Positions 4,901 to 63,867 of a stretch of DNA of 64,000 nucleotides are shown in pieces. Position 1 is the first letter of the stretch. Every line of letters begins with the position of its first letter. The stretch is from positions 88,720,886-88,784,885 of the forward strand of contig CM026426.1 in assembly GCA_014871385.1 (NCBI GenBank). Reading direction: 5' to 3'. The notes beneath the pieces were generated by a model that was given only the letters and a program-made list of their open reading frames with translations, was not told the origin of the DNA and did not search any database. The position numbers and the translations under genes are program-made. This DNA comes from Ceratodon purpureus. Taxonomy: Eukaryota; Streptophyta; Bryopsida; Pseudoditrichales; Ditrichaceae.

Positions 4901-5083
4901 CGGATAAATGCTGCCATCGACCCACAAGTCAATGCTTGTATCCCCGGCTGCCCTCCGTCGTGGAAATGTTGATGGGCAGGGTTGCTCGGATCTCATTGAA
5001 CCTCTCCTAACAAGTGGTGCGTAGCGTGCATCAAGCGAAAGTGAGGGACGGTAGCTTGAAGCCTCTGCCACTCCTGCTGCCAT
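1924..5083 (-). pseudogene. Unrecognised coding repeat, copy A (broken)
   Basis: A chain of minus-strand open frames reads from a start at 5083 to about 1924 and matches copy B at 41015-44107 block for block. In order it has an N-terminal block (IDLWVDGSIYPVDPGTG, then FICHGEQGL), a coiled coil near residues 110-200, a basic block (RRVKLVRTHLQPHLVDAV), a block with SLFTDLEVVQQSMVIFYG, a block with LKLDEAEIVNGKKSERVS, a cysteine pair (CIYCDQKR), and a conserved RVHICTLHALVRLTEKIVH segment. An intron of about 138 bp at 3676-3813 has GT..AG ends and sits at the same place as the intron of copy B. The reading frame is interrupted at several places, so the copy is not functional as written. I do not recognise the family. 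The conserved acidic residues and CxxC would fit a transposase-like protein, but that is a guess. Confidence 0.65.
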
Positions 5084-41014: not shown

Positions 41015-44000
41015 TCATACAGGCTCGTTGCCAGCGTCATCGCTGTCCACGTTGTTGCCAGCGTCGTCACCGTCAGTTGAGTTGCGTCCTTCCTCAAGAT
41101 CCACATTGTTACCCTCCTCCCCGGGGTCATCTTCGTTGGCAGATCCTCTTGCTTGATCATTGTTGGCTCCATCACCTCCAACGGTGTTATCACACACCCA
41201 AGCTTTGCCAACACGTCGTCGCCTTGACCGCCAATTCTCCAAAGCCCTGGCAGCATTTGATCGATGCCACTGTTCTCGCCTTCTACGTGTAGCCTCCATG
41301 CGGGCCTCATCGTCCGGGGTATTTAGAACCCTGGTGCACTCTAATTTCTTCTTATACCGATGCTGTATATTTCGGTACCAATGTTGGAATTGTTGCAAAA
41401 TAACACTGATGCGCTCTTTGCCACCACCGTGAGCTGTATGCGCTTGATTCGCTGCCTTCGCTTGATGATGGGATTTCTCCATACCCTGGCAACTCCATAC
41501 GACCAGACTACCGTATTCCTCCACAAACCAACTGCCATGCCTGACAATTACATGCTGTCAACAGCCACTCCAAGGTTAGTCCTGGATAGAGAATTGACAA
41601 AAGTGAGGTCAGCCATCAACCCCTAATTCATCCCAAACCTCGTTCATATAACTCACCATGTAGTGCGACACATGCTCCTCTCCGAAGGCCTCCAAAAATG
41701 TTCTCCCCCACGTTTCTATCTTCCCTTTGAACTGGAGTCGTTGTTCTGCTGTCAGCACCAAGCCGCTGAAATATGGTAGAACCTCTTCAAAGGCTTGCCA
41801 CATAGCAGCCCTTGCCCTACGATGTGCACCGCCGCCACTATTATTGCTCTCTGCTTGACATATGTCTTTCCAGGCCTTGTCGTTTCCAGACCATACGCTT
41901 GGTTTAAATAGTCTGCTAGCAACAACCCCACTGAAAGATGGCTTCTGTGGCACATTCCCTGTGCTGCCACTCAGTTTCGGATCCTTTCTAATCTCCACAT
42001 TGCCACCGTGAGCCCCGATAGCTGACAAGGACTTCTCCATTTGCTCTATGGCTGTAACCCTCAGTCTTTGATCTTGTATGTTCCAGACATAAATGATGTG
42101 TTGATGCACAATCTTCTCCGCTAGGCGAACTAGGGCGTGAAGTGTACAAATGTGCACTCTTTGCAACGGAATTGGCAAGATAGGCCTCCACCTTGTATGT
42201 GCACGCATGTCACATGGTTCTGGCTCCACAGAGTTGGCAAACAGTCCCCCCACCCAGTTCGGTTTCCCACGTTTTCTGATGGCAGCACTCGCCTGGCTTG
42301 CTGTCCCTACGGTAGGCTTAGCCCTCTTCTGCTTGCAGTATATGCAGTTCATCGCACACGACGGCCCCGACTGAAGCCCGTACATACACTTGATCGTCTT
42401 CATGTCCGCAGCGAGATGCCACTCCACATGGAATTCTCCAACTTCAGGACCGTGAGTTTCTCGCCACTGGACTGTGCTACAATCACAGATGGAAATTTGG
42501 ATTTCCCAAATATCCACGAGAGAACTTCGTAGGACTCTTTTTCCACTTGAAAGGTTGCCACTGGCCAGATTTCCTGCTTCGACTGGACCGAGAAAAACAG
42601 GGCATGGTTTCTCTGAATGTCTGGGTCGAGCGCCCTATTCATCAATGTGATGCTGACCCGTTCAAACTTCTTGCCATTGACAATCTCGGCCTCGTCCAAT
42701 TTCATGACAAATACCTGCGGTGCCCCTCTTAACTCTGTGGAAACATGGCGAGTGGATGTGTAAGTCACGGTTAATTGATAAATAACCCTGCTGGCAGCAA
42801 ACTCTGAAAACAACAGTCTGAGGTGATTACGTTACCTTCTTCCGTGATGCCGTAGAAGATCACCATGCTCCTTTGGACCACCTCAAGGTCTGTGAATAGG
42901 GAATTCTTGTCAGTCAATACGACTTCCTTTACCATGTCCTCGGACTTCTTGTTCTTCTTAGAACTTGCTGGCAGCGTAAGTCGACCTTCAGCATGGGAGT
43001 ATTCGTCAATATACTGTGGCAGGTTTGCATTTAACTCCTGCCGAAGCAGTTTCACGTGATAGGGGCTCGGCAAAATACTCCCGGAGACTCCTTTGTTCAG
43101 AGCAGCAATGGGAGCCTTCACAGATTTGTAGAGAGCACCATATCCCTGATGGGAAACCCTGTCTGGTCGCAAGCAGCAAGAATTTTGTCCGGTCCAATAC
43201 TCTTACCAATCAATTTAAGTACATTGTTCACAATCTTTGACTGAACATGTGCCATTGCAGACTGAGAAGCGAGTGCTACACCTTCATGCCGTGACAAAAT
43301 TCGAGCTAGTGCTACTGCAGTCCTATTTGGGGACTCTTTATCCCCCCGCAGTCGAGAGCACTTCCGGTTCTCTCGGTTCCTTTCGACAACAAACTGCACC
43401 ACATCTGGTTGCAGCACTGTCCGCACAAGCTTCACTCTTGCTTTTGATCCACCTGATCCAGGTTTTAACTCGTCAATCCCTCTAAGAGCCCGACTCCTAT
43501 TTCGCATGCCCATGGGGGTCTCCTTCTCGAAGCTCGCCCTCCGCTGGCAGCGGTCAACGTCTTCTTGGAGACCCCGCACATGGCGCTCCTATTGCTCCAC
43601 CCTTTGGGCATGGCAATCACGGACAGCCTGTAATTCAGCTTGCAAATCCCTGCATTTCTTCTCTAACTCAAGGCAACGCATTCTCCCCAATTGGACATCT
43701 TGGGCTGCCCTTGAGTTGCTGGCCAGAGCTTCGCCTCTAAGCTGAAGCACTTCTTCGCTCAACTGTGCCAACTGGATCCACGTCTCCTCCTGTGTAGGAC
43801 CATGTACACAATGATCCAGCAGCCTGTGTGTATATCCGCGAAGACCCTGCTCTCCATGACATATGAATTCAACGAACTCTTTTAGCGACTTGATTGGAGG
43901 TGGCTTCCCTGTCATTGGGTCAACAGGGTAAATGTCTCCATTGATCCACAAGTCAATGTTCGTGTCTCCACGCAACCTCCGTGTTGGAAACGAGCTCCTC

Positions 44001-44107
44001 ATGCACAGCTCCACTTGCGTAGAACCTCGTCTCATGACCGGGGCATAGCGTGTGTCCTGTGCAAAGTGGGGAATGTACTGATTGCTTCGTTCAGCCCTTG
44101 CTGCCAT
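41015..44107 (-). pseudogene. Unrecognised coding repeat, copy B (broken)
   Basis: This copy parallels copy A over its whole length and is better preserved in the C-terminal half. The frame at 41609-42517 holds ERHLAADMKTIKCMYGL-like sequence, CIYCKQKRAKPT, RWRPILPIPLQRVHICTLHA and a long helical C-terminal part (EAFGEEHVSHYMV). The N-terminal block at 43589-44107 has IDLWINGDIYPVDP and FICHGEQGL, then a coiled coil. An intron at 42735-42835 has GT..AG ends at the same position as in copy A and contains a PAL-A core at 42790. The C-terminal segment 41015-41524 is rich in Arg, then Asp/Gly/Asn. The frame is interrupted a few times. Two similarly built copies plus fragment C mean this is a mobile or duplicated coding unit. 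The family is unknown to me. Confidence 0.65.
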
Positions 44108-44761
44108 CGTGGACCCTATAGTCGGTAATCTTGATTGAATCTCCCCTGGTCACACTTGGTGATTTGCTGTTATTCGAGAGAACTTGTTCTGATCTTGGGA
44201 CACCTCGTACACCCAATGAAAAACTGAATTCACAACCTCAAATACTCTGAACCTAATTCGATAGACCTGCGTGGCATCTACAAGCGCTGTCGACCACGAA
44301 ACCTACATTGCCTTATGCCGTTGTGGCAGCAAGGGCTAATGAAATCGAAATGCAAATTGCTCAAAAACCCAGTAGCCCCTGAACACCCCACAAAGGTTTA
44401 TCGAATTAGGTTAACTTACCTTCCCTTCAAGTACATCAGTTTTCATCTCTTCGTTGAAACCTTGGTCGCCGACTGAGAACAACCCCTTGCCGCCGTCGCT
44501 GCCAGCGGACGCTGCCAAGAAATGAATTGCAATCTCAATTTTGCTCCTCCGGTCTGGGGCGCCATCGCCACTCGGAATCTTTGGAGCAAATCACATACGA
44601 TTGTGCGTCCCACAGTGCCAACAACGACTTGCTTGAAGCAGAACAGGGCGCTTCGTTTTCTTGGTGCTGAACGGCGTAGAGCCGGTGGCGCCATCGCGCC
44701 CAGACCGTTGTGGCAACAACTCGAACAATCCTTGGATCGAGGCCGGTGTAGCTTGTATGGT

Positions 44762-44795
44762 AGCGGCGAGCGGCGAGCGGAGAGCGGCGAGCGGA
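44762..44795. repeat. Short GCGAGCG tandem repeat
   Basis: Four or five imperfect copies of a GCGAGCGG/GCGAGCGGA word stand in tandem upstream of copy B. Confidence 0.6.
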
Positions 44796-44885
44796 GATTT
44801 GGTGAGCGACGAGCAGAAAATAGAGGTCTAAATCTAAAAACAGTATTATTAGTACTAAAAAAAAAAACTATTATTAGCAAATTCG

Positions 44886-44924
44886 AATATTCTCAGAATA
44901 TTTTTAGAATATTCTGAGAATATT
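44886..44924. repeat. Nested palindrome PAL-D
   Basis: A 17-bp odd palindrome, AATATTCT-C-AGAATATT (44886-44902), is followed by TTTAG and then the same palindrome with G at the centre (44908-44924). The pair therefore also forms a larger hairpin with a 5-bp loop. The half-word TTCT..AGAA resembles heat-shock-element units, but the chance of this in AT-rich DNA is appreciable. Confidence 0.7.
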
Positions 44925-45273
44925 ACTATTTTTGGTAATAATTATGACCCTATAACCGTGGACTGGAATTCACTATTTCTGATAATTTTGATTTTTCATT
45001 TGTGTTATTCCCTTCTTGATTTTATTTTTAAATACTATTTACGGTTCGTATTAATGCATCATCTAGAAGTTGCATTTATTATCTTATATTTTTTTAATTT
45101 TTAATTTTTTTTAACATTTTATCTTTTAACTCTTTCTTATCATTTATTCTTTTTATCTTTAATCGTTTTTTAATTATTTTCAACTTTCATACCTTTTATC
45201 TTTTCATTGTTTCTATTTTCTATTATCATTAATTTTAGTTTATTTTACACTGTTTTCTTTTTTTTCTTCAATT

Positions 45274-46379: not shown

Positions 46380-49300
46380 CTATTTTTTGGCCAAGGGGTG
46401 TGTCAAGATTCCGCTCTCTAGGACTAGCTTGACTTCGTTGAAACTAAAGGTAGGCGCATGGATGAAAATCTCGGCCTCCGGATTTCGGTTGCAGACCTTT
46501 AAAAGGATGTAATAAATATGTTTACAGTATGAAAACTATATCTTACCTCGAAACTTAGTCATCGTCTTCCTGAATGCTGGACAAGTGCAACTCGGGTAAG
46601 ACGTGATGGTGATGTTGTACTGTGTGATGTTTGGAGCAACGCCCGAATCCAGCCCGATGATGCAACCATGGCCTGGATGAGGTATCATGGTGATGGAACG
46701 GAGGCGAGCCTTGAGGGACTGAGAGGAGCCCATGGAGAGTCGCTGCGCCGGGTTTGGTCGAGTTGCTGTGCGTTTGACCATCTTCCCATCTCGCTTACCA
46801 GGGTAGCGGTCAGCCTCTGCTGGAATCGGCAACGAAGCGAGGTTTGGAGGAGGCGGAGCAGACGAGAAGAGACGTCTTGGAGAGACAAGCTTCTTCGGCG
46901 GGAGTTGGAACCCTGCAGCTTCAAGGGCGAGGATCTCATTAAGCTTCAGGTTAGTACCTAGTTTTACGGGCCACACCTCTGGAATCGGCGGCACTTCAAG
47001 GTCCTTGGAGTAGTGTGCAACCCACTTGCGCCTTGCGCCTTTCACGCAGCGCTCAATATCATCGGAGCAGAAGAAAAACTCTGTCCTCTCAACCGTATTC
47101 CTGCGATAGTTTGTCCAAACTCCGGTGTAGGTCGGTGCAGCAGTGAAGTTTGGGCCCCTGACAATTCTCTCAGTGCACTTCTTTTTTGTACCAGCTCTTT
47201 GGGCCCAGCAGCACTTTGCAGAAGCTTTGTGAAGTCTTGCAATGTGCCACTCCTTCACATCAACCTTGGTTTCTTCAACAGCGTTGACATGGCAAACGCC
47301 GACCTCGTTCACAGGAGACGTTGGGGGCGAGTAAGCTTCTTGGGCGGGAGATTCTTGGGCCTCTTCTTCTTCAGAATCGTCCTCGACGATGATGGGCAGC
47401 TGGACAGTGCGAGCTCGAACGTTGCGTCCAACACCTCTAGGACGTGAGAAGTTAACCTTGTCTGGTCGGTGTGACTCCTCGTCAGCTCCGATGGGAACGT
47501 CCGCCTTACGCTTCTGTGATCCAAACACCTCTGCTCCGGCCAGGATAGGCTCACGGGTGCAGAAATCATCTACACCAGGCATATCCAGCATCGGATCTTT
47601 AAGGACTTTAGGATTTCCTGTTTTCTTCGCCAAGCGTTCCGCCATTCGAAGCTTGAGTTCCTTTTTCGAAGGTCCAGTTCCGCCTACATCACCTTTCAGG
47701 AACTGATAGTAGTTTACAACCTGCAGAAAGCCCCGAACGTAATCATCGACAGTCGCAACATAGAGGTCGCTGCCGTTGTTACCTGATGCTTGTAACCACT
47801 TATTGTGAGCTGTTTCGGCGAGGTTACAGGTCGGCATCTCTGTGAGTTCTTCTTCAGTAAATTTCTGCAGTTTGAGCAGTTACAATAGTTAGGATCAATT
47901 ATAGAAGTGATGTCGATTAGATTTACCTCAACAGAAAACAAGTACAGCAGCAGGGTTAAGTAGCATCATACCGCAGACATGAATCCACCCCATTGACGAT
48001 AGCGGTGGTGCCAGAATGCGAGCCAAGTCCCCAGATTGGTTAGGGCCTTCTCTCCCAGGACCCCAGTAGATATCCACCATGCTTGCAACGCGTGATAAAG
48101 ACTGTCCGCCTCTGTCAAAGTCATTGCTGTCCTATACTGGTTGCACATCTTCTTGTGCTGTTCCCGGAGCTCTTCGGGAAAGTACTTGTCAGTGTACTGG
48201 ACCATGTTCTGGGTCCAGTGGAACAGGCATGATCTTTCCCGATCCTCCATTTTGTCTTCTTGATGCCGTTTCCGTAGAGAATACGCACCGCATTCCAATT
48301 TGCTTGTGCATTGTCCGCCATGAAGCCTTTGAAGTTTGGCGTTGCAACGCCATTCCTCTCCATAACGCTGTTTAGGTTCTTCCAGAAGACCAGCTGAGCC
48401 TCGGTGTCCTCGGATTGCATGTCGCAACTTGCAATCGTCATGACGCGGCAGTAGGTGGCGTCATATACATGGCAAGCCATCGTGGACCAATCCCGTACAC
48501 GCTTCACGTGGTCGAACATAATCCAAGCGTTGTCAAGATCCCCACCAGGTTGCATTCTGGTGACCTTCTCTCTGTCAGCTCCTTGGCCCGGGAACTTGTT
48601 CTCCTGGACGAAGGCCCACAAACTGATCCCACGGAGTTTGGTGATGGCGTCCATCACTCCGTATCTTCCAATTCGCTTGAACGTCATCACCTTGTTGCGG
48701 ATATTTGGGGAAGCCATGTCCTTGCACCGGTCAAGTACAGGAATGAGCTCCTCCATAGTGAGCTTCTTCGGTGGTGCGTCCTCAGGCTGTAGGAGGTAGT
48801 TCCCAATCAGAATCTTGCTGGCCTCCAAGACAACGGCGCTCTTCGTAGCCCGGGGAGTATTCTCCACCTGTTCTTCAATCAAGCTATTGATCTCCTCCTT
48901 AGTGTCTCTATAGTCTCCAACCTTCACTGGATGATTATGTGTTCCTTGATGGATACATGCCCTAGTCTGATTGGATTTACCTAGAACGTAATAAATCTTG
49001 GCTCCGCATGTAGCAATGCATGCAGGAGGTTCTTTACATACCTTGCAGACAAGTGTTGCATCCGTTGGGGGTGGCTGATTCACTGTAAAAGCTTGAAGGG
49101 TACTACCCTCAAACTCAGTCTCGTTTACCTAAACGATTCGAGGTCGACGGTTGAGAAATTCACATTCTTTGTTGACGCAGCGCAGCCAACCAACGCAGCT
49201 GGAATAGCGGAACGACAGGCTGAACTCATTAGTGATGTTGGTAGTGATTGTTTTCGTCCAAATATGGCCGTCGTACCGCTTGTCCATCCCCTTCATAGCC

Positions 49301-50094
49301 TTCGCTTGCGTCTTGGAAGCCCCGTCACCAACTGGAGGGAGCTCAAATATCACATTGTTGTTGAAGACTGCAGGTAAGTACTCCACCTTCTCCTGACGAA
49401 CTGTGGAGAAATCTATTCTCTTCAGAATATTTTTCCTCCCAGGTCTCTCTGCAAGTGTCCTAATGAGTGGCAGTACATTGACAGTCTCCTCCTTTGATGT
49501 CTGTGAGGTACTGGCACATTTCTCTGGTAGTGTAGCTGGCGTGCTAGATACTACAGTCTCTCTAGGCAAAGCAGGTGATGCCTTGACAGGACTAGTCTCC
49601 TCATCTAACGAGAGGGAGATGACTGGTGTTACATCAGGAGTGTCCAAGCCAGGCTCTACCTTAACCTTCACATCACGAGGCAGAGGAGTCTGAACAGTAA
49701 ATGATCTACGAGGAGTTAGAATCTCAGTAGACGCCTGCATTTGGGACTCTGTAAGACCATAAACTCTGTATCTACCAGGATAAAGGTTCCAGAACCTATT
49801 ATCATCATCATCTTTCTCAGAAACCTGATCTAGCGTATGTGTAATCTCATTTGTCTCATCATCATAAATCTCTTCCTCTAAACAGATAGTCTCCTCTCTA
49901 AAGTGAAATCTGAGGCTAAGGCGTTGTGCCGTCACAAGGGCCAAGCCATCCTCATCTACACGTACTGTAAGTGGAATACCAACACCCTGTGCTCTGAGCA
50001 CGGCCATGCCTAACACTCTGTCTGCAGGGAGATGAGCCATGCTAAGATATGTGCTGATAGATTGAACTGGTGCTAAAGGAATTTGTGAACACAA
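46380..50094 (-). pseudogene. MULE (Mutator-like) DNA transposase gene with SWIM zinc finger, decayed
   Basis: Order on the minus strand: N-terminal variable region (start 50094 or 50040), a cysteine-containing segment (WLRCVNKEC; LVCKVCKEPPACIATC), a MULE-type DDE domain (YDATYCRVMTIASC with the first Asp; FMADNAQANWNAVR with the second), a helical part ending FWHHRYRQWGGFM, an intron at 47876-47971 (GT..AG), an acidic linker, and a SWIM finger made of CTCPAF and CKHIYYI, then FIHAPTFSFNEVK and a stop at 46380. Three lesions are visible: an in-frame TAG at 49129-49131, a 1-bp frameshift near 48256, and an in-frame TAG at 46536-46538 between the two halves of the SWIM finger. Frame and similarity resume after each. 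The element would move DNA by cut-and-paste if intact. Terminal inverted repeats were not found. Confidence 0.85.
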
Positions 50095-50624: not shown

Positions 50625-53600
50625 ATGCTGGCTATACCTAAGAAGCGGCGAAAGAAAGTGTCGTCTCATTTTAGTAGCACTAAGGCCCTTAGACGTAGTA
50701 AGATGGCTAGAGCTAGAAAAGAGGCTGAAAGATTTCAGAAGGATGGCATAACTAGAGCATTAGACTTCGAGAAGACAGACGGAGACTCAGCATTAGGGGG
50801 CATTGAAGAAGACAGCACATTGCGTTACGGAAGGCGTGTCAAGCATCAGAACCCCAAAGTCGTGGAATCTGATACAAGTGTAAGCGCTGGAAATAAGGTA
50901 TGAGATATTTTATCTTTTCATTTACAAATTTCTTTATGAAATAGATTACTGAGCTTTACCGTGAAAGCTTACCATCAGTAGTTCCATTTGCCAACATTTA
51001 CACAACTCTGAAAACACTATTAAGCGGTTCCAGAATGTCAAATCGTCACCTTTTCCGTTAATTGGGTTTTCCTTATGATCGCTAGTCCTGCGCAAGTCTA
51101 GATTCCTTTCCATGGCTTTAGGGTTAGGGCAAACTACATTTCTTCGGTTTGGAGTTTGTTGCTGGATTGTATATGGCGTAAGAGGTCAGGAGGTCTTCAG
51201 GATTAGCACTTCTTCGTTTCGTTCTTTTATCTGTAATTATTGTTGCCGATTGAGTTCAGAGAATGGAGCCGCTGGTTGATGCCCCGGAGCAATCAGAGGA
51301 GGAGGTGACGCAGGGCAAGGCGTCAGGAGTGCCGCTTTCTGAAGTGGGTGATGAAGACGAGGCCATGGAAGAACCCGAGGCTATGGAGGATGAGCAACGG
51401 ACAGAGGGAAGAGATCGCGGTGACAATGATGACCCAGAAGATGATGCCGAGACTGAGGAACAGCCGGAGCCATCTGAAGGTATGTGTATAACCCACCTTG
51501 TGACTTTCTTATTGCAGCTCATTTTGATTTTGTTGCGACTGGGGTCAAGCAATGGTTTTGCTGGCAGCAAAGTAGACCAAAGTGCGATAGTTTCTACTCC
51601 TTAAGATAATTTATTTAGGTTATCACTGTAGTTGATAGATTTAAAAATTTGATGTTTAAATCATAGCTCGATGCTCATGTTGTACACCAGCGTCGATGGT
51701 TAAGGTTCATGGACTTCTGTAAATGCATCTGTAGTTCTGCACTTGCTTGGAAATAGTACTGCCGTTAACGGCAGTATAAATTTGTGGTTCGCTATTACGG
51801 GATTCAGCTGAAATCTGCTCTTTATCTTCAAGTGTGAAAATCTTGGTGTCCACCACTAACAGGTGCTTGCCATAGTACTGCCGTTAACGGCAGTACATTA
51901 TCATGGCTTTTATATCCATAGGTGTGTTGACTCAATTGGTTGTCTTAGAACTCCGAAATACTACTGCCGTTAACGGCAGTACAAACCACACCGTTAATCC
52001 GGCTTCTTCCTTGCCGTTAATCCGGCTTCTTCTTTGCACAGAAGTGTGGACACTAAGATATTTGAATGGTTAATAATTGTACTGCCGTTAACGGCAGTAC
52101 AAATTTGTATAATTTATTCGCATATCACTGTCTTTGCATTGGAATGTAGGTTACAGTGTCAATGTGATCTAGACAATCTGTGCTAACTGTTATCCTACTA
52201 CCATTAGTCTCCTGTCTTAGAAATGCGCTGTTTAGCACTCTGGCTATTCTAGAATTCCAAAATTCAATCATTCCAATATTCTTGTGTATGTAATAGATTT
52301 GACCTTAAGTTTTAATTATTGACCTAGAGTTACTGATTTCTACCGAATAGGTATCAAGACTCGTGTTTTTTCTTGTTCGCAAGTTTTGGCCCAGAGGTAC
52401 TGCCGTTAACGGCAGTACCATTGGACTCAATAATTTAAAAAAAAAATATACTAACTTATACGTATTGCCGTTAACGTTAGTTGAGTTCTTTGGTTCTTTT
52501 GACTTGCTTAATTTAATTCAATTGCATTTCCACTCACAGCAGTAGCCTTACAAAATACATTTGAAGCAGTGTCTGATTGCCTTGAGATGCATGTTCAAAC
52601 AAATAGTGACTAATGTATGCCTTTAAAAGCTATGTCCAATCAAATATGCAAACAAATAGTGCATTTAGAAGGTTTGATCAATATATGAGTCGCTCTTTTG
52701 GTACTGCCGTTAACGGCAGTACCAATTCCATGCTATTTTCTATGCATTGTTCGCTTAGCAAGCGGAGTATATTATAATAAATTTATGTACTACCGTTAAC
52801 GGCAGTACATTATCATGTCAGAGTATGTGGGTACGATTGGGTCTCTAAATGTACTGCCGTTAACGGCAGTACCAATTCCATGCTATTATCTATTCACTGT
52901 TTGCTTAGCAAGCGGTCTCAAAATGTACTGCCGTTAACGGCAGTACATAAATGGATGCTTTCTTCTTTGAAATTGTTATCTTTCTTGGAAAATCTGAAAC
53001 GCCTTTGTGTAAGTTCTGAAGTGTTGTTTTGGTACTGCCGTTAACGGCAGTACTAATTCGCTGATGTTTTCAATGTTTATATTGACACCAAGGCTAATTC
53101 TGTTACCGGCAATACTATAGTATTGGATTTGGAGATACTTATTCTTCCCTGTATTTAGGTACTCTGGTTAACGGCACAGCAATTTCGAGATTCTTTTGAA
53201 TGACTCGTTGCGTACATCTTCATTTGATTTGTGATCTTCTGTACTTAAAGTTACAAAGCCTTGAAATATATTATTAATAAGATTATCATTGCATGTATTG
53301 CAGAAGCAATTTCATTGACAGAGAGCGAGGTGAAGGCAAAGCTCCACGACTTGGTAGAGAAGGAGATACCAAATACTGCGTCTCAGCTTGATCAGTTGAA
53401 ATGGGAGCCAAGGACTAAGGGAAGACTGTTTATTCCACTTTGTAGAATGATATCGTTGCCTGTCGTGCGGCCTTATCTGAAGACGGATGTTTCACAGTTG
53501 GCCTCATTCTTTGTAAAGACTGGTTACTTAGAAGGGAACGGATTCTTTTACGTTGCTCTACAGGATAACCTCGGCCACACCATCGATGTCACACCGGCTA

Positions 53601-56600
53601 TTACAAGCACTTGGAGCCCGGAATGGAGAGAAGTTAATGAAGATTTTGAGAAGACTCTCCAGGAGGACGAAGATTTAAGAATGTTTTCTAACAAGATGTT
53701 TCAGGTGTGGGACGGCAATCACCGTCTGCAAGCGTGGTATTCAATCATCAATGAGTATCACCCCCGGGACATAAATTGGCACTATAGGGTGGAGAGCATC
53801 GTACTCGATCCAAAAGGCGATATACCTGCAGTCATTGCGGCATTACACGAAGTCAATTGGTAAGCTCCATTTTGCATTGACCTTCTGCTTTTTTTTTATA
53901 TATGGGATCATAGCTGTTACTCAAGGTTCGACTGCTAAACAGGAGGAACCAGAAATCACACGTGACAACGAATTTGGTTCACAAACTCTTTAGGATCCAG
54001 AGCGTAGCACCACAACCTTTCAGCTATTTTGAAGGTCTTGTACCACCTGCAGCAATTGAAAGTGCCAAGAAGAAACAGGCTGGGGCAAAGCGTACTTGGT
54101 ACACTCTTACTGTTGAGTCCCTTAATGCATTCCTTTATCAGGTACTTATTCTGAACTTCTAAATTTTGTGATTCTTTGTTTTATTTTTCAAAAATTCTAG
54201 CTATTCTAACTACATACCATGGTGATATCGCAGCAAGAAATAGGTGAAGCAGCCTCAAATGCAGAGCTGCGATTTTATGAAATGTATCCAGAGAAGCATA
54301 TGTGGACCAACAAGTCTGTAGACGAGTGGGTTAGGTTGGCCGTGGAGAAAGTTGTTGCCACGCAACAAGGAGAGCTCAGAAAATTCCTTCCGGTGGCGGA
54401 TCCGAAGCATACACCTGCTTTTTTGGAGCAGGTAAAGGTTCATTATGAGAAGAACGAGTCTCCTGAAATGCAGCAGGAGAAACTCCACATGTTCGCCACG
54501 TCTGCTATTCCAACCAAGATGAAGATCAAGTGGTTAGAACGCTGGAATTCTCCTGAGTCCATTCGCAAATCTCACCGGTTTCCAAAGCCATCATTTGCAG
54601 ATACAGTATTTCCTCCATGGCTTCACCGAGCAACATGGTGGGCACAGGTATTTTATTTTAATCGACTTAGCTTCTTTGGTTTGATATGAACTCTATGCTT
54701 TGAAAGATGCTTTGATTTTTATGATGTCTATCTCCCCTTTAATTTATATTGTGCTCTGCTGCTATGGTACTGCCGTTAACGGCAGTACATATCTGTCCCA
54801 TTTTCATGTCACGGGAATTAGCTCGGAATGTACTGCCGTTAACGGCAGTACCAATGTCTTCCTTTTTTTAAAGTCGCATGTCTCTTTATGCAAGGCAAAT
54901 TTTGCAACGCATCACATGTTTTATGTTGAAAAGGATTTGTGTGACTTCCATTTGTCAAAGCTTTCGACTCGGCGACTCGCTGTCTCGTTACTGCCGTTAA
55001 CGGCAGTACGTTTTTTGGTGTCTGAAAATGTACTGCCGTTAACGGCAGTACCAAAGCTCGCCCTTTTTTTAAAAGCAGCGTGTTCCTGTATCTCTATATT
55101 TAGGCTCATTTATCTATACACATCATATGTTGTATGTTTAGGTGCATTCGTTTTAAATCCATGATTTAATTCATATGACTCGCTGTCTCGGTACTGCCGT
55201 TAACGGCAGTACCTTTTCGCGTTTTCTTCTACTGCTCGTGACTGAAATTCTCCCGTTTTTGTATTCCATCGTGTCTCTGTATGCAAGGCAGATTTTACGT
55301 TTAGGCATCTTAACATCACATGTTGTATGTTTAGGCTTGTTGCTGTTTCGGTACTGCCGTTAACGGCAGTACATTTAAATTCATTTATTGTCACAATTTT
55401 GGTGACTGAAAATGTACTGCCGTTAACGGCAGTACCGAAGCAGAACCATACCTTGGCTATTTTATTGTTGGTCTTGGCTTTGTTTGCTATGCACGGTTTG
55501 CTACACACATTTGCCATGATTTTGTATGCATTAAATCATTAACATATTCTTTCTAACCAGCTTTTACTAAATAATATGTTGATTGTGTTGTCTAATTCAT
55601 TGACTATCGGGGTAAATTAATTTGAATATATTAACTGTAGTATCTTAAGAATACTTTGTTTTTAATATTTGTGTGTCTATATTAGCTAGGCACGGTTATA
55701 TTTGCGTGTCTTTTTATGTTTGCTTGAGTCCGTTTGCAACTTTGCATTCAGTTATTGACATGTTGTTTTTTAACCGCCAGTAATGATTGATATGCTGATA
55801 TTATTGCTTTACTGATTGACTACGACGCTACTCAACTTGGTTTGATATTGCTTCTGTGAAATATCATCTGGATTAGGAATTAGATGGTAATTGTTTAAAT
55901 CGAAATGCCGTGACTTAAGTTGTACTAATTGCTTACCGGTCTGTGCAGTTGGCAGTAGAAGCGGAGGAGCTCTTCGAGGCAGTGGTCACTGACCTGGGGG
56001 TGAGAATCAATTATTGCCCAAATGGCGAGAACCCAATTGACAGTATTTTTGACTATGTCGAGGGCATGCGTTGCTCTCTTTGGGATATAGCTTTTTTTAG
56101 GGAATTCATGGGACCAGATCAGGCACACAAGAACAAAACAAAGGATCAACAACCTAATTTCCAGCCAGCATTGAGGAGAATTTTGTACATGTATTTTAAG
56201 TACATTTTGCTTCCTAGGAAAGCAGTGACCCGGGTACCTGCCTTCTTCCCCACATACCTGGATACCACTAGTCCTGAGTGCATGTTCACCCCAGCCATTC
56301 TAAAGGCTTGGGACAACTGTCACTATGATCGTTGTGGATGGTACCTTCACTGCCCTGTCAAGAAGCCCCCTCCCTTTGATGTGCAACTGAGGGACTCGCT
56401 CCAACCCACACTTGCGACCCTTGCCCCTGCTCCAGCACAACCAGGTGCCTCTCCTACCTTGCCAAAGAAGACCAGAAGGGCTGCTGGAGCAAGCAAGTCT
56501 CGGGGTGCTAAACGCAAAGCTGCTGAGGTCGAAGAAAATCTTGATGAGGACATTCCTGCTACAACGGCAGCGAGTGGCGACTTGGTTGATAAACAACCTC

Positions 56601-58276
56601 CTGTTGAGGTAGCACCCATCCGTACTAAGTCCCCTGCCCCAAAACCTCAAGTTCTGAAAAAGCCGCATGTCGAAGTTCAGGACCCAGACTCAGGTACCCC
56701 ACTCATTCCTCCATCACTGAAATCCTTGGTAATTACCCAGCCATCATCCAGTTCAGCACATAGCTCGCAGGTCTTGATCCTGAACGACACGTTTCCGAAT
56801 ATGATGGACTACAAGAACAAGCACAAGAAATTTCCCAAAAGCTTTGATGACATGATTCACTTTCTCCTAAAGGTAATTCGATCAATCTTTAATTGTATTG
56901 TAATTTAGGACCTTGTTTTATTGATCATAAAACTTAATGCCTTTTGTTGGATTTCAGACTGGTGAGAAACAGGATTTTTATTTTTCGGGAAAACTCATGT
57001 TCAAGCCAGGAGTGGACCTTGTTATAGCGGATTTTCCAGACGGCCTCTCGGTTCCTGGTGTCTCCGACCCACTCACACAAGTACCTGCCTGGACCCAACA
57101 AGTTAAGTCCTTTATTAAATTTGTGATTGGTTTTTGTGGTGGTTACTTGCACGACGATGGAGCTCTGTTAATTTTTGGTCCCGATAGCCTACACTTCAAG
57201 AAGGAGTTGATTGCTTTTCTCAACAACAACGATCTAAAGGACATGAAGGAGTGGTCAATTATCAACGCTCTTCACCTGATTCATCCCACGGACCCCGACA
57301 GTTTTGTAAGAAATCTCTGGAACTCTGCGTATGTGTATTACCTGTGATTATTTTTGAGAATGGGATCATAATGTTTTGTCTGTCTTGGTTGTTAGACTCT
57401 GAAATTCAAGGCGTTCCTGCTTGTCCGATCCTTTGGGGCCTCGGTAGTTAGGCAGCCAAAGCCTCTACTCCTCCCTTCGAGCAAGGGAATGGGCATGACT
57501 GACTTGGCAAAGGACGATGTGCTATTCAACTTTGTTACCGATAAGGATTGTCTTAAACGGAGTGACGGCAAGCCATGGAGGGGCGCGAAAGAGAAGTCAT
57601 ATGCTTTACTGCATTCCCTCATTTTTGGAACCTGTCCATTAAATGGCACGATCGTCGACCTTACAGCTGGAACAGGTATGAAATTCAGTCGTTGAGTTTT
57701 TTATTCCAAAACAATTAGTTTTATATTTCTCTAATCAGCTACAATACGAAACTAACAATTTTATCTTTTAGGTGCCTCGGTCCGTGCTGCAATATCCACC
57801 AACAGGAATATTGTCGCTCTTGAAGGGGACCGCGAGATCTTTGAGGAAATTCTGCTACCACTCCAAACGCCTCCCAAGGAAACCGCAAGTACTGATCAGA
57901 CCGATGTTCAGGAGCTCTCTGACGAAGAAGCACCATATCCTGAAGAAGAAAAAATAAATCTATGTGAGTAAGTTCCATGCTGACACGTTTATACTTCTCG
58001 CTTCAATTCTCATTTCTGCTGTTGTTCAACATTCATTCTGATAAATGAAATCTGTCTTGCAGTCGCATGAGTGGCACTTCACCATCCAGCGAGTCCTGTT
58101 TCAATTATGAAAATACTTGGAATCTCCCATGTTATGCCGAGGCAAGAGCTCAAGCCCTTGCTGAAGAATCTGAGCATAGTTCCAGTGCATCATCTTCACC
58201 TCGTAGCTTTGATCCAAGAGTTATGCAATTTATTGATCATAGTGCAATAGAAAGCGATGACGTGTTTTCTCCCTAG
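50625..58276 (+). CDS. ParB-like domain fused to beta-class amino-methyltransferase-like protein
   Basis: Exons: 50625-50897, 51260-51479, 53304-53859, 53943-54141, 54234-54647, 55949-56872, 56958-57305, 57396-57675, 57772-57967 and 58063-58276. They sum to 3624 nt, an open frame of 1207 residues, with GT..AG at all nine introns, so the gene looks intact. Residues 1-91 are basic (PKKRRKKVSSH) and 92-164 acidic. A ParB/sulfiredoxin-like segment follows, with VWDGNHRLQAW (DGNHR at 301-305). Residues 350-555 are helical. Residues 710-830 are a disordered linker with a basic, nuclear-signal-like stretch (KKTRRAAGASKSRGAKRK). The last domain has, in order, DLVIADFPDG (887-891, where DPPY is expected), FCGGYLHDDGALLIFGP, then the SAM-binding DLTAGTG (1066-1072) and NIVALEGDREIFEEIL. 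Catalytic motif before SAM motif is the beta-class order of DNA amino-methyltransferases. ParB plus such a methylase is a known phage/bacterial fusion. Activity is uncertain because the catalytic motif is altered. Confidence 0.8.
51558..51570. repeat. PAL-A palindrome in intron 2
   Basis: TTGCTGGCAGCAA, a perfect 13-bp odd palindrome, lies about 80 bp into intron 2 of the ParB-methyltransferase gene. It is the only PAL-A copy seen to the right of 44.5 kb. Confidence 0.85.
51756..53180. repeat. Palindrome cluster PAL-B in intron 2 (10 good copies)
   Basis: The unit is a 22-bp perfect palindrome, half-site GTACTGCCGTT joined to its reverse complement, with GTTAAC at the centre. Copies begin at 51756, 51875, 51961, 52079, 52397, 52701, 52787, 52851, 52925 and 53032. 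Most are perfect; 51756, 51961 and 52787 carry one change. Decayed forms are near 52462 and 53159. Some flanks are duplicated too: the bases after 52701 and 52851 match for about 46 bp, and those after 51875 and 52787 share ATTATCATG. All lie inside intron 2 (51480-53303). Confidence 0.95.
54767..55435. repeat. Palindrome cluster PAL-B in intron 5 (7 copies)
   Basis: The same 22-bp palindrome begins at 54767, 54830, 54988, 55030, 55191, 55351 and 55414. All are perfect except 54988 (first base). Copies tend to occur in pairs 42-63 bp apart. In the 54767/54830 and 55351/55414 pairs the left copy reads G|palindrome|AT and the right one AT|palindrome|C, so each pair also forms a larger inverted repeat. 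All lie inside intron 5 (54648-55948). Confidence 0.95.
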
Positions 58277-59460
58277 CTTCCACATGACTCTTTGAACTTT
58301 TGTTTTATGTTGATTTTGGTTGGTAGATGCTTGAGCATATTTTTTGAAAGGATTTGGATAAACATCCCCGTTTCTCAGCAGCTTTCATCTTTGATACCTG
58401 TTATCACTTTTCTTCGATTGGACAAACTGTTCATAATTTGTCCATGCAAAGTACCATTCTAACAATGAACAGACACAAGTCCATCTCTTTTAAAATCCGT
58501 CCTTGTGATTAATCAAGACGCGTATGAAACTCGGATGACTACTTTTAAAAAAAATTATAAATTGATACTCATTTAATTAATTTACATGCTCAGTTGAACA
58601 ATTGTGCTATGTTCACTGTGCTGTTCTGACATCTCGAACTGAGGCATATTAATTTTTAACTGATTAGAAGTTTAGCAGGGATAAGAACCAATAAACTGGA
58701 AATAACATCCATTTATCATCATACTATTGAATCTACGAATTTTATTCTGCTAAAGTATATTTTACTTCTGCCATCATAAACTTGACTTGCAATTCTCGGA
58801 AACCTAAGTTTCGTAGCCATGCCTGTTTTACTACATCTCTCAAGTATGTTTGTCCCCACATCTTTCAATATTAAACTACCTTGGCTATTTTGGTTGTTGT
58901 GATCTGTATTAGACTAACTCGTGTTATTAAAGGTTTAATCTTTTCTAATTGGAGAGCCTTAGAACACCATATTCGTTATTTTGGGAGATTTATCATCTCC
59001 CAAAATAATGCATTAGGTCAGGTCGAGTTAAAATGGGCACAATGGTCCCATACTTGACAAGGAAAAGCTTATAAGCAATTTCCATTAATTTGGGACATGA
59101 TCACACAGTACTAATGGGAAATGAAAGAAGGTAGTGGTTTACTAGAAATACTTGAAAAAATACAAGGTAGGTCGAACCATTCTAAATGAACATCAAACAA
59201 ATAACAAGAAATGGACACAACGGATATGCTCGGAAATCTTATATTATATATATGTGTGGAAATACAAATTAGGTCGACACTCCTTAAATGTTGAATCCGT
59301 GACAGGCTCTTTCAGACCTGTACAAACAATCAAGTTGTTCGACTAACATAGCTGCCTACAGTTTCCGGAGTATGATATGCAATCCAAGAACATACGGACT
59401 TCATAATAGTCCCATGCCAACAAATATATGTTATCGGCTCTACTTCAGAGATCCAAACTA
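58277..59460. other. AT-rich DNA between convergent genes
   Basis: No gene is supported. A hairpin with 14-bp arms TTATTTTGGGAGAT and its complement (58977-58990 and 58996-59009, 5-bp loop) is present. Half-site-like words AGGTCGA or GGTCGAGTTAAA, resembling PAL-C halves, occur near 59022, 59166 and 59271. Confidence 0.5.
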
Positions 59461-59934: not shown

Positions 59935-62771
59935 TTATTCAGAATCCGGAGACACAAATCTCTCCAAGGAGGCCTTTATAATGTCCAGTTGTTTCGGTGG
60001 GATCTTCAGCGTTGGATCCTTGCCAACGCCCCGGTCGTTGACATTTTTTTTAACTTTGGATTTCCAAGCTGTTATGACTGCATCAGTACTCTGCCACGAC
60101 TCGGGTACATCCTTCTCAACTGTCCAACGAAGTCTCCCATCCACATCCCAGCCGGTATAGAATTTCAAAACATTTTCATCTCGGGAAATTGGGCGGTAGA
60201 ACTCTACTTGGAGCGTGTTTGGGAGGTCATGGTTCGAATTAGGGTCAGTCAAGGCCCGCGCAAGCCAAAAAGGACGATCGTCTTCATCGCAGGGTCGTAA
60301 TGCTAAGAAGTACCCTGCAAAAAGGTCTCGCGCAACACGGAACGACGGTCCTGGGCGATCTCGTTTGTGACCAACAAAGTGATCATCCTCTGCGAACTCC
60401 TCGCGCAAAGTTCCATCTTCCTGAAACTCGTCTTCGACGGAGTGAGCGAGCCGCGTGGATGGCCAAAAACCATGCTCCAAGGCGGGGACAACATCAAAGG
60501 GAATGGAAAGAGCCTGTTTAACATCGTTCCAATAGTATGAGAGTGGCTCATAGATTCTTCTGGACTCGACTGAATCCGAAGATAGCCTCTCCCAATGATC
60601 TACAAAACCCGACAAGCCCTTAATCACATCAGGCAGGTGCCGCATCTCGCGAGGCGCCACGGCACCAGGAACACCACGGGGCCATAAAGATCGACCTTCT
60701 GAATCCTCCTTCCACAACTTGATGCCACAACCATCTCCTTTTGGCAACCAGTCGTCGTCGTGACAGAAGATTTTATACTTCATGACTGGGCATCCTGAAG
60801 AATCTACATAGAATTTGAACTGATGAGCTTTAGTGTGACCCATTAACGTATCGTCGCCATCAAGCATCCACTCCGCGATGAATTTCTTGAAATCTGGGAC
60901 CTCCTGAATAAGATGCGGAATTGTTGGTACTGCTTCATGTTTCATGAAGGACTTCATGAGGAGAGGTACTGTGGGGAAGTCCTCCCTCCGCAAAGCCATG
61001 CTCCATCGCCCGAAAAGGGCATCAATATCGTCATGAGTATGGCCGACCAGCATGAAATTCACGTACACTTCGCGAAACACCCGCTTCGCGACTAATAGGG
61101 ACCAGAATGAAAATACAAACCTATTCTTGTTATCACTGACAGCGTTATCCATTTGGACGTTAAGAATGGGAGGCAAGGGTTTAGCAGCAATAGGAACCTC
61201 AGGAGGAGGGCCAAGAGGATCCAAACACATCTCTGAACCATGCAAAAGCGCGGCATACAATGGGTGGGAAGGATTCTCTTGAAAGAGTTCCCTAGAGGTG
61301 GATTTAGGGGGTGACTCAAGGTCCCAAAGGAGCTTCGCAAACGATCCAACCGTGTAATTAGCGTCGTGTGAGTAAATGTCAAGGCCATAATGGGCGTAAC
61401 GTTGGTCCACATGCCCATGAGCAAGCATTCCCGTGACAGCAAGAGGAAGCTTCATGAGACCGTCTAAGTGTTTGACCTTGTGGGATAAGGCCGGCGACGC
61501 CGTCTTCGAGTGGTCCATCTTGTCATGCATAATAGTAAGAACTTCATGCGGAGTAGCCTTCGACCTGAATCGATTTAGGTAGTACAAGTCCCTATGCGCC
61601 ATTGCAGAGTCATTGTGCAGCCTCATTTTCTTAGACCACAACAGGGACGCCTGAGATCCTGTAACCGTCAACTTCTTCTGGGACTGGAACTCATCACATT
61701 TTGAGCAACGAGCGAAGTTGTCTCCTGCCCGTTTGGCGTAATATTCTGGATAGCTAAGCCTCCTGATCTTGCTCAAGTTAGAAGCGGACATAGGAGGCAA
61801 TCCGCAGTCCGCTAAATGCTCATCGAGGATGGGAATCTGTTCCTTCCATTTGAAACTGGAAGGCAGAACTTTAGCTACAACTGTCTCCCCTGAAGGCAGA
61901 ACACGACTCTTGTGGGGCATGTGGTCGGCATGCCTGTCCAGGATGGCCCCTAGGACGGCAGTTGCTACGACTGTGTGATTTCGAGGTTTACGTAAACCAG
62001 TATTACCGTGAAATTGAGCCTCGAAACCAGCAGCAGCATACTGGGCATTTCTATAGAATGTACTGGAGCTCACTCCCATAATCTTCATCCAGGCGAAGGG
62101 GCAAACATCTATGCCCTCCAGAGTCACCACACTCTTCCCCGCTGAATCTTGTGGATCTGTCTATGCACGTCGAGCTTTATGTGATTACGGAACTGCACTG
62201 TGGTCTTGTCGTACATACGCGACCGTAGACTAGAGATTTTATCTCTGGGATAGTGTTGGACGCATAGGTGAGCGCAGCACGTGTTTGCCGCTACAGAGTT
62301 GATAGATGGCTGGGTCATCAGAAACTCAGCGTGACGTGATATAGGAGGGGGGGTATTCCTAGAGGAGTTATCATACGATCGGGTACGATCTCCCAGGGAT
62401 CGGTTACGCTCCGCAACCCAACGGTTATACACATCACGTTGACTATGGTGCTCTAGGCTAACTCCATCCAGATAGACGTGGTTGATAGGCCACGTTTTGA
62501 AGGAGTACCTCCAATCATCCTCTGACTCTTCTTCGACCAAAGAACTTGATACCTGGACGACGACAACGGAATCACCAAGGGGACCAACCGTGTCAGATAC
62601 CAAGCTGGACCGTGGGTTCCGGATCAAACCTTCTGCTAACGGGATATTGTCGTCACTATATATTGTTACAGTCTTGTTCTGCCATTGTCTTGAGGGTACA
62701 ACCACGAAGTCTGGAAGGTCTGGGTTTACGGGCACTTCAACGGGAACCTCGTCATCTGAGACATAGTCCAT
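59935..62771 (-). pseudogene. DUF7869-type transposase-like gene with one frameshift
   Basis: The frame begins at 62771 (MDYVSDDEVPVEV) and runs 215 codons to about 62124. A second frame resumes in register with the family and runs to 59935. The switch lies near 62140-62160, between LDVHRQIH and SAGKSVVTLEGIDVCPFAWM, and is best explained by a 1-bp gain or loss. Features: acidic N-terminal region; a CCAHLC cysteine cluster; SSTFYRNAQYAAAGF (helix-turn-helix-like); a CxxC pair (FARCSKCDEF); HDKMDHSKTA; QMDNAVSDNKNR; and the signature VGHTHDDIDALFGRWS. The spaced Asp residues fit an RNase-H-like fold, as suggested for this family. About 945 residues in total. It converges on the ParB-methyltransferase gene and lies between PAL-C palindromes on both sides. 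Except for the frameshift it is well preserved. Confidence 0.75.
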
Positions 62772-62868
62772 TGTACCTGAAATGCAACAGACCCATTTCT
62801 GTTAGAACATATTATACTCCTTAAAGAGAATTAATCTCTAAATTTGTAGGGAAACATATCCCAGGCGC

Positions 62869-63270
62869 AGTTTAGCTCGAGTCGAGCTAAACTGATCCTG
62901 GACAATGGGAATCATGAGTTTAGCTCGAGTCGAGCTAAACTGCTGCTGCCTTTTCGATGCAGAAGTTTAGCTCGACTCGAGCTAAACTCGTGTTGCCCTT
63001 TGGATACAGATGTTTAGCTCGACTCGAGCTAAACTACCGCACCCATAGGGCGCCAGAAGTTTAGCTCGACTCGAGCTAAACTCGTGTTGCCCTTTGGATA
63101 CAGATGTTTAGCTCGACTCGAGCTAAACTACCGCACCCATAGGGCGCCAGAAGTTTAGCTCGACTCGAGCTAAACTTCTTCCGCCCTTTGGGTGCTTGAG
63201 TTTAGCTCGAGTCGAGCTAAACTCATGATGCTCTTTGGATGCAGCAGTTTAGCTCGAGTCGAGCTAAACT
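62869..63270. repeat. PAL-C array: nine 25-bp palindromes with 47-bp period
   Basis: The unit is half-site AGTTTAGCTCGA, one central C or G, and the reverse complement of the half-site. Copies are at 62869, 62917, 62964, 63011, 63058, 63105, 63152, 63199 and 63246, spaced 48, then seven times 47 bp. Copies 4 and 6 differ only in the first base. The 22-bp gaps vary but share a CCCTTTGGATGCAGA-like consensus; two of them alternate, giving a 94-bp higher-order repeat from 62961. The first copy lies 98 bp upstream of the ATG of the DUF7869-type gene. The palindromes are much better conserved than the gaps. Confidence 0.97.
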
Positions 63271-63867
63271 GCAGTCCGCAAAAAGCGGCGCTTTAATAGG
63301 TGCTTCCATCTTCGGAATTCTGAGTCGCAGACTCAGAGTACGCTTACGGTGTCCGCTCTAAAACGTCTGTAAGAAGGAAAGAGAGACACTGCAAATACAC
63401 CATGACTTGAATCAATAGAAAGCATACAACAAGCAGATATCAATGAAGTGTACTGATGATCGGAGAAAACTAAAGAGAAGACGTACAACAGAAACGGCGC
63501 AATACAGCTTCCGCCCAGAAAACAACAACCTCCAAGTGAGCGCCGAGAGCTCCTACAAGCGAGAGAAGCAAGTGAGTAGAGAAAAGACTTCGACCGGGGA
63601 CGATTCCAGAGGTCATTCTTTAACGTGTGACCGTTTTCATGCCGCTTCAGTTTTGAAAATAGGCGGGAATCATGCATGACCATTCGACCCTCCACATTTC
63701 GGGGTGTGAGAAAGCGCGGGAAATACCACTTTCCACACTTCTCGGCCCTTTAGATAGATGCAGATGCAAAATATTTGGTGCATTTAATCAAATGGGATGG
63801 GTTGGAAGTCCCTATAGCGCCAGATAGAGTGTTGACTTTTGGCCGCGAACTTTTCTTCCTCTATCAG
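63271..63867. other. Upstream DNA right of the PAL-C array, no gene
   Basis: No gene is supported. A small palindrome TCTGAGTC-GCA-GACTCAGA lies near 63320-63338. The open frames on both strands at 63333-63695 lack domains. Confidence 0.4.

What the first reader, a model, noticed from the sequence alone, without database searches (positions are those of the whole stretch)
51756..55435. Seventeen copies of one 22-bp perfect palindrome, all inside two introns of a single gene
Seen: half-site GTACTGCCGTT plus its complement occurs ten times in intron 2 and seven times in intron 5, at least thirteen of them letter-perfect, while the surrounding intron sequence is unrelated in most cases. None is in an exon and none was seen elsewhere in the window. 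Inference: the palindrome spreads or is kept on its own, as a mini mobile unit, by gene conversion, or as a protein-binding site of the gene's own ParB/methylase product.
Basis: partly seen in the sequence, partly recalled or inferred. Interest (0 to 1): 0.87.

Follow-up and report, generated by a model that had tools for sequence, protein, structure and literature searches.

The report
Transposon introns carrying lineage-specific palindromes
In what is probably a moss genome, a large jumping-gene family carries rows of one exact short palindrome inside the introns of its own methylase-like gene, and different lineages carry different versions of the palindrome, as if these were address tags by which the element recognises its own copies.

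Summary
In detail: 17 copies (13 exact, 4 with one mismatch) of GTACTGCCGTTAACGGCAGTAC, ten in intron 2 and seven in intron 5 of one ten-exon gene, none elsewhere in the window. The gene is cargo of a large Mutator-like DNA transposon (terminal repeats; 9-10-bp target duplications in 4 of 4 copies with both ends read). Genome-wide the 22-mer (up to 2 mismatches) occurs 1227 times, its reversed control 0 times; of the first 50 perfect places listed, 49 sit at the intron 2 or 5 position of gene copies. Other lineages carry different palindromes there, built on GCCG-N4-CGGC (13 of 13 gene copies read). In two of three tested copy pairs the sites change about 4 and 10 times more slowly than flanking intron; the third is not significant. 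Between the window and copies D, A and E, synonymous sites are saturated while the backbone is 91.5-95.7% identical, so gene-plus-palindrome cassettes have moved between elements. Most likely these are self-recognition sites, working like the motif arrays of Arabidopsis VANDAL/VANC elements, with a methyltransferase-like protein in place of VANC. The binder and the anti-silencing role are inferred. The ParB assignment was not supported.

The parts
44743..44989 (+). left terminal repeat and subterminal region of the Mutator-like element (GGTGTAGCTTGTATG here; more G-rich in other copies)
   Evidence: similarity to copies B, D, E and F begins at 44745; target duplications shown in other copies, not testable here because no right end was found
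46536..50094 (-). transposase-like gene, read as ORFs 46536-47837, 48121-49083, 49129-50094
   Evidence: main pieces about 90-97% aa identical in copies A, B, D, E, short pieces 88-96%; no Pfam match; MULE assignment rests on target-duplication length, terminal repeats and a catalytic pattern recalled by me
50625..58276 (+). ten-exon gene for a 1207-aa methyltransferase-like protein: exons 50625-50897, 51260-51479, 53304-53859, 53943-54141, 54234-54647, 55949-56872, 56958-57305, 57396-57675, 57772-57967, 58063-58276
   Evidence: open spliced frame, all introns GT-AG; Pfam N6_N4_Mtase E 0.0022 here, 1.4e-5 in copy A, both below the curated cut-off; within-pair dN/dS 0.09-0.18 for exons 3-5
51756..53053 (.). 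palindrome cluster 1, intron 2: ten 22-bp sites starting 51756, 51875, 51961, 52079, 52397, 52701, 52787, 52851, 52925, 53032
54767..55435 (.). palindrome cluster 2, intron 5: seven 22-bp sites starting 54767, 54830, 54988, 55030, 55191, 55351, 55414
58277..58962 (+). part of the element downstream of the gene still shared with copy B; beyond this the window departs from copy B

Best explanation
The palindromes are self-recognition sites of a large Mutator-like DNA transposon family. Each element carries, beside a transposase-like gene, a variable cargo gene for a methyltransferase-like protein, and the large introns of that gene hold arrays of a symmetric site GCCG-N4-CGGC whose outer bases and spacer are characteristic of the gene lineage. 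A sequence-specific protein, most likely a dimer of the cargo gene's own product, binds these arrays and marks the element's own copies, probably to lift or escape host silencing, as VANC proteins do for VANDAL elements in Arabidopsis. Shown here: the element, the intron placement, the lineage-specific variants, the retention of the sites in two copy pairs, purifying selection on exons 3-5. Inferred: which protein binds, that it binds as a dimer, and that the outcome is anti-silencing.
For: Target duplications of 9-10 bp at 4 of 4 copies with both ends read (A, B, D, E). Of the first 50 perfect 22-mers listed, 49 lie between exons 1 and 3 or in intron 5 of five gene copies, 1 in relic F. Core GCCGN4CGGC upstream of exon 3 (intron 2 position) in 13 of 13 gene copies read, intron 5 position in 12 of 13, 0 of 13 in the exon 3-5 block. 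Different palindromes by clade: GTAC-TTAA, GCAG-TTAA, GCACC-GGTACC, GGTGCC types; also intron 6 and the gap between two transposase-gene pieces in one lineage. Sites change less than flanking intron: W-B 3/374 vs 211/2533, D-L032 7/352 vs 175/2356, permutation p 5e-5 and 2e-4. W and D introns are otherwise unalignable (52-57% mismatches outside the sites) yet hold the same 22-mer. The backbone is near-identical while the cargo gene is saturated at synonymous sites, resembling the conserved VANA and variable VANC, whose motif arrays lie in introns and other non-coding parts and differ between families (PMC5735166, Results read).
Against: No binding, expression or methylation data. Motif type does not track the cargo protein perfectly: copies A/E carry the exact GTAC palindrome of the window although their exon 3-5 product is only 65-66% identical to it. 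A-E, the youngest pair, shows no significant slowdown (3/330 vs 44/2132, p 0.19). L034 has no core in the intron 5 position and L035 one. The methyltransferase motif IV is altered ([DNE][FLV]P[DE] instead of DPPY), so the domain may be inactive. Homogenisation by conversion could also keep the sites alike. The binder could be a host factor.
Confidence: 0.5

Rival explanations
1. RNA hairpins: the intronic palindromes act in the pre-mRNA as short stems (9-bp stem, 4-base loop) that steer splicing, intron retention or small-RNA production.
For: They lie in introns; spacers TTAA, GTAC, GTGC, GCAC could be loops; some copies have perfect palindromes of 44-110 bp; in the GCAG type G-U-compatible stem mismatches outnumber A-C ones 17 to 6, with 42 others.
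Against: In the GTAC type stem mismatches are G-U 15, A-C 12, other 33 (120 sites with up to 4 mismatches), no clear RNA-pairing bias; the central four bases of that type are changed no more often per position than the stem (7 substitutions); outer bases are characteristic of the lineage, which a generic hairpin does not need; the non-palindromic spacer occurs in both orientations in L031/L036, as for a double-stranded DNA site.
Confidence: 0.15
2. Host-factor sites: the arrays are enhancers or insulators bound by a host transcription factor, gained by the transposon to drive its genes.
For: The same core GCCG-N4-CGGC in all 13 gene copies read; the same GTAC type in distant gene lineages W and A/E.
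Against: 1227 copies, 0 for the reversed control, and nearly all listed and inspected places in this element; lineage-specific changes of the site are not expected if one host protein reads all; placement in introns 2 and 5 rather than at the promoters.
Confidence: 0.17
3. Methylation targets: an active cargo methyltransferase methylates the symmetric sites (GTTAAC or GGTACC adenines, or CCG cytosines) as a self-mark.
For: Methyltransferase-like C-terminal domain; palindromic sites as for bacterial DNA methylases (recalled).
Against: Catalytic motif IV altered in 6 of 6 copies in which it could be read (W, B, D, A, E, L029up; the fragment of C does not reach it) and in L044; the L031/L036 core GGTGCC is not an adenine-containing palindrome; recognition sites this long are unusual for a stand-alone methylase (recalled).
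Confidence: 0.08
4. Neutral repeat dynamics: small palindromic units inside introns multiplied by slippage and conversion and have no function.
For: Clear tandem arrays in some copies (period near 127 bp, 57 sites in L034; 212-bp spacing in L044); site numbers differ between close copies (W 17, B 19); A-E shows no significant slowdown.
Against: In the window only 5 of 17 sites share a 30-bp flank; the 22-mer is kept while flanks diverge in W-B and D-L032; the same 22-mer persists between lineages with saturated synonymous sites.
Confidence: 0.1

Closest known systems
VANDAL21/VANDAL6 elements with VANC anti-silencing proteins (Arabidopsis; PMC5735166, PMC10398659)
   Same: Plant DNA transposon with a conserved transposase and a fast-diverging companion gene; short motif repeated at high density in non-coding parts including introns of the companion gene; motif differs between related families; tandem-repeat expansion of the motif regions
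   Different: Companion protein here is methyltransferase-like, and Pfam reports no DUF1985 or DUF287 in it; sites are 22-bp palindromes, not 8-9-base motifs arrayed in one orientation; binding and hypomethylation are not shown here
ParB-parS and ParB-N6_N4 methyltransferase fusions of phages (PMC12704722, passages read)
   Same: A methyltransferase-like domain, and palindromic sites near the gene (that parS is palindromic is recalled)
   Different: No ParB match in Pfam; profile comparison with five phage ParB proteins no better than shuffled columns
Miniature inverted-repeat or foldback elements (recalled)
   Same: Short inverted repeats in many copies
   Different: No own target duplication seen in the window sites; the listed and inspected copies sit almost entirely in introns of one transposon's genes

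Membership tests
Mutator-like element (MULE) | about 9-bp target-site duplication and terminal inverted repeats | tested here: met
   A CGAACTGTT, B CGTTGCAGT, E CTTGCCAAG, D (T)CTCCCTTCC: 4 of 4 copies with both ends read; left and right ends, read inward, share GCGTGCGGCGAGCGGCGAGCGGAGAGCGGCGAGCG in E. The window copy itself could not be tested
Mutator-like element (MULE) | MULE transposase and SWIM domain | tested here: inconclusive
   No Pfam family for the transposase ORFs; pattern resemblance only, recalled
VANDAL/VANC system | VANC protein with DUF1985/DUF287 | tested here: not met
   Pfam scan of the 1207-aa product (E up to 0.5) gives only N6_N4_Mtase
VANDAL/VANC system | family-specific motif arrays in non-coding regions of the element | tested here: met
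   13 of 13 gene copies read, types going with clades except that A/E share the window's type
VANDAL/VANC system | companion protein binds the motif and removes DNA methylation | not testable with these tools
   needs EMSA, ChIP-seq or methylome data
ParB/parS | ParB-CTPase domain | tested here: not met
   No Pfam match; hhalign scores 10.0-11.7 against 17.5-20.0 for the best of 60, 60 and 40 shuffled controls; the resemblance of DGNHRLQA to ParB is by eye. Small alignments, so a very distant relation is not excluded
N6/N4 DNA methyltransferase (PF01555) | profile match above the curated cut-off | tested here: not met
   18.4 bits in the window and 25.6 bits, E 1.4e-5, in copy A against a cut-off of 26.7; PHROG DNA methyltransferase E 5.5e-9 for the copy A domain still supports a distant relation
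N6/N4 DNA methyltransferase (PF01555) | catalytic motif IV, (D/N/S)PP(Y/F/W) | tested here: not met
   [DNE][FLV]P[DE] in 6 of 6 copies where it was read and DFPD in L044; the consensus is recalled, and the Latilactobacillus phage protein aligned reads DPPY
MITE/foldback element | own target duplications and dispersal outside the host element | tested here: not met
   flanking 8-mers of the 17 window sites show no duplications by eye; 49 of the first 50 perfect places at gene-intron positions, 1 in a relic element

The most novel reading that the evidence does not exclude
A second, independently evolved class of transposon self-recognition system in land plants: a Mutator-like element whose companion gene has a methyltransferase-like, perhaps catalytically dead protein as the specificity factor, which reads long symmetric sites placed inside its own introns. 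Gene and site types travel together as exchangeable cassettes between element backbones, giving several private recognition codes in one genome, including on the 110.5-Mb chromosome that I take for a sex chromosome.
Probability: 0.35. Interest if true: 0.9.

Novelty: new variant of a known kind. Interest (0 to 1): 0.77.

Why it matters
If right, sequence-specific self-recognition by plant transposons is not an oddity of Arabidopsis VANDALs but has a counterpart with a different protein. It offers a natural series of site specificities, each with many natural sites, for learning how a protein-site code evolves, and a possible explanation of how one element family reached a high copy number in this genome. 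The cassette exchange between old cargo genes and young backbones is itself a testable picture of an arms race.

Tried and rejected
Mini mobile element: rejected on distribution and lack of own duplications. Simple tandem duplication in the window: rejected for most sites by flank comparison, though true in other copies. ParB: not supported. Relatives of the exon 3-4 region in phages (five hits, best E 5) and of exons 3-5 in viral contigs (87 pattern matches, no relative): nothing. Solved structures: none or chance level (best E 0.14). Rfam and tRNA genes: nothing in the window. Structure model of exon 3 without an alignment: mean pLDDT 39, not used. Transposase as the reader of the motif: L031 has a 94% identical transposase stretch but another motif; A/E argue against the cargo protein alone in the same way, so the reader of the motif is open. 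Genome counts of the other palindrome types were asked for (GCACC-GGTACC type) or planned and never answered. Literature: one search found 13 papers with the 10-base core and, by its ranking, none with the 14-mer or 22-mer; searches listed no paper on such a moss element, but they list only 10-15 of 38, 43, 224, 520 and 951 papers, so this is weak evidence of novelty; a paper that I recall as the genome paper of Ceratodon purpureus is not held.
Full report
WHAT WAS CHECKED. The 22-bp palindrome GTACTGCCGTTAACGGCAGTAC occurs 17 times between 51756 and 55435 (13 perfect, 4 with one mismatch; 0 in 100 shuffles). I read the gene around it from the sequence and joined ten exons with GT-AG borders into an open frame of 1207 residues. 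Ten palindromes lie in intron 2, seven in intron 5. No exact half-site occurs elsewhere in the 64 kb, and the looser core GCCGN4CGGC occurs 16 times, all in the two clusters.

THE GENOME. The window lies on contig C6 (110.5 Mb) of an unnamed assembly of 362.5 Mb. I infer the moss Ceratodon purpureus and one of its sex chromosomes: a table in PMC13120521 gives 358 and 349.5 Mb for two strains (passages), and PMC8000587 says that U and V each exceed 100 Mb of a 360-Mb genome (passages).

GENOME-WIDE. With up to two mismatches the 22-mer occurs at 1227 places, its reversed control at 0. The first 50 perfect places listed fall into six loci on C1 and C2. In five of them (A 7, B 18, C 4, D 11, E 9 places) they lie between exons 1 and 3 or just before exon 6 of a copy of the same gene, that is at the intron 2 or intron 5 position; exon 2 was located only in the window and B, and C keeps only exons 6-10. 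The sixth (F, 1 place) is a relic of the same element without recognisable exons. The exact 14-mer core TGCCGTTAACGGCA occurs 1344 times, control 0. Of its first 50 places I inspected 43: 34 lie in introns (2, 5 or 6 position) of gene copies, 3 in the gap between two transposase-gene pieces, read as an intron (L045), 5 in relic F, and 1 (L046) stands alone with no element beside it, about what chance gives for a 14-mer; 7 were not inspected. Six gene copies on C1 that rank in the exon-3 search carry no perfect GTAC 22-mer; the three of them that I read (L029, L030, L036) carry other palindromes or near-palindromes instead.

THE ELEMENT. Copies B, D, E and F align with the window from 44745 on. 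Complete copies are about 18.6-22.3 kb long, with ends of the form GGGGTAGCTTGTATGCGTGCGGCGAGCGG and GGGGAAAGTTAGCATGCGTGCGGCGAGCGG (small variations) and target duplications of 9-10 bp in 4 of 4 copies whose two ends I read. This is the signature of Mutator-like elements (recalled). A transposase-like gene lies on the minus strand at 46536-50094; its identification as MULE is by target duplication and pattern, since Pfam gives no match. The window copy seems truncated or interrupted: similarity to B ends at 58962 and no right end was found downstream to 10 kb beyond the window.

CASSETTES. The transposase backbone is 91.5-95.7% identical in DNA between the window and A, B, D and E, yet the cargo gene ranges from 94% (B) to 64% (A, E). 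Exons 3-5 of the window and D differ at saturated synonymous sites (dS 2.45, dN 0.057) although the backbone of the two is 95.7% identical; within the three close pairs dN/dS is 0.09-0.18. The W-D similarity of the backbone ends at 50902, next to the end of exon 1, and that to A and E ends at 50131, between the two divergent genes. So old cargo genes, with their introns, have been exchanged between young backbones. Not all backbones are this close: the transposase pieces near L029 are 80-83% identical to the window's in protein. A search with exon 3 scored 150 of 1858 candidates, all 150 matching at 62-100% identity, so the family is large.

LINEAGE-SPECIFIC SITES. Eight further gene copies (L029-L036), chosen from the hit list for different identity levels, were read. 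Seven carry other sites at the same places: GCAGTGCCGTTAACGGCACTGC (L029, L030, L034, L035), GGACCGCCGTTAACGGCGGTCC in intron 5 of L029 and L030, GCACCGCCGGTACCGGCGGTGC in intron 5 of L033, and the imperfect TGCCGGTGCCGGCA in both orientations (L031, L036); L032 has the window type. In the gene of L029 intron 6 carries GGACTGCCGTTAACGGCAGTCC as well. All share GCCG-N4-CGGC, found at the intron 2 position of 13 of 13 copies (4-36 each), at the intron 5 position of 12 of 13 (L034 none, L035 one) and in the exon 3-5 block of 0 of 13 (borders are approximate except in the window; copies C and F were left out as truncated; L031 has 5 more upstream of the border I set). On a tree of exons 3-5 the types go with clades, with one exception: A/E form a separate clade but have the window's GTAC type (13 sequences, the deepest split has support 0.72).

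MAINTENANCE. In alignable pairs the sites differ less than the flanking intron: W-B 3 of 374 positions against 211 of 2533; D-L032 7 of 352 against 175 of 2356; A-E 3 of 330 against 44 of 2132; L034-L035 (intron 2) 14 of 263 against 208 of 1455. By permutation p is 5e-5, 2e-4 and 0.19 for the first three (17, 15 and 14 ungapped sites); the A-E difference is thus not significant. The other pairs are diverged or partly unalignable, with sites again lower: L029-L030 45 of 242 against 427 of 1209 and 5 of 110 against 56 of 596; L031-L036 42-50% against 52-54%; W-D 21-41% against 52-57%. Sites were picked by closeness to the motif in either copy, which favours low divergence somewhat. Synonymous divergence of W-B in exons 3-5 is 0.057, so the sites (0.8%) are also slower than synonymous sites. 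Selection and local conversion are not told apart by this. In the window only 5 of 17 sites share a 30-bp flank; L034 in contrast has 57 sites with a period near 127 bp.

THE PROTEIN. The C-terminal part is a divergent DNA-methyltransferase-like domain: Pfam N6_N4_Mtase E 0.0022 in the window, 1.4e-5 in copy A, just below the cut-off, PHROG DNA methyltransferase E 5.5e-9 for copy A. An alignment with phage ParB-methylase fusions places DLVIADFPDG on their DPPY motif and DLTAGT on motif I (E 0.004 but probability only 8.6%). The altered motif IV suggests loss of catalysis. The ParB reading of the first reporter is not supported.

MECHANISM. Exact symmetry, high density, non-coding placement, lineage-specific variants and slow change at the sites fit binding sites of a dimeric, sequence-specific protein. 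In Arabidopsis, VANC proteins of VANDAL elements bind short motifs packed in introns and other non-coding parts of their own family, the motifs differ between families and spread by tandem duplication, and VANC expression removes DNA methylation; the transposase VANA is much more conserved than VANC (PMC5735166, abstract and Results read; PMC10398659, abstract and passages). The element here shows a similar anatomy with a different companion protein, so I propose the same working. Which protein reads the site is open: L031 has a near-identical transposase stretch but another site type, and A/E have a distant cargo protein but the window's site type.

VERDICT. A real and striking feature, a new variant of a known kind if the function is as proposed. 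No binding or methylation evidence exists here.

Noticed in passing
window 59935-62771 (-): Gene with DUF7869 (Pfam E 4.4e-43), probably of another mobile element lying where the window departs from the Mutator-like element; the stretch upstream of L033 also encodes a relative (34% aa over 657 positions).
   Followed up: no
window 1924-5083 and 41015-44107 (-): Two stretches with similar predicted ORFs in the same order, apparently two copies of one repeat family (ORF list; by eye).
   Followed up: no
window 62867-63273: Dense direct and inverted self-similarity, related to a stretch about 7.7 kb further downstream, beyond the window.
   Followed up: no
L034 (G000:C3:9168654-9174100) with L038: About 7 kb of the intron-2 region filled with 57 palindrome sites at a period near 127 bp; a related copy (L035) has a perfect 110-bp palindrome.
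   Followed up: partly
L027, about 6.3 kb upstream of the window (G000:C6:88714621): Right end of another element copy; a gene copy 94% identical in exon 3 lies at C6:88703281.
   Followed up: partly
window 10267-10890 (+): ORF that looks like the end of a Ty3-type integrase (by eye; Pfam gave only a weak DUF3850 match).
   Followed up: no
copy E, G000:C2:4740001-4760000, between the cargo gene and the right end: Two further long frames, 344 and 505 codons stop to stop, on the strand opposite to the cargo gene, of unknown function.
   Followed up: no
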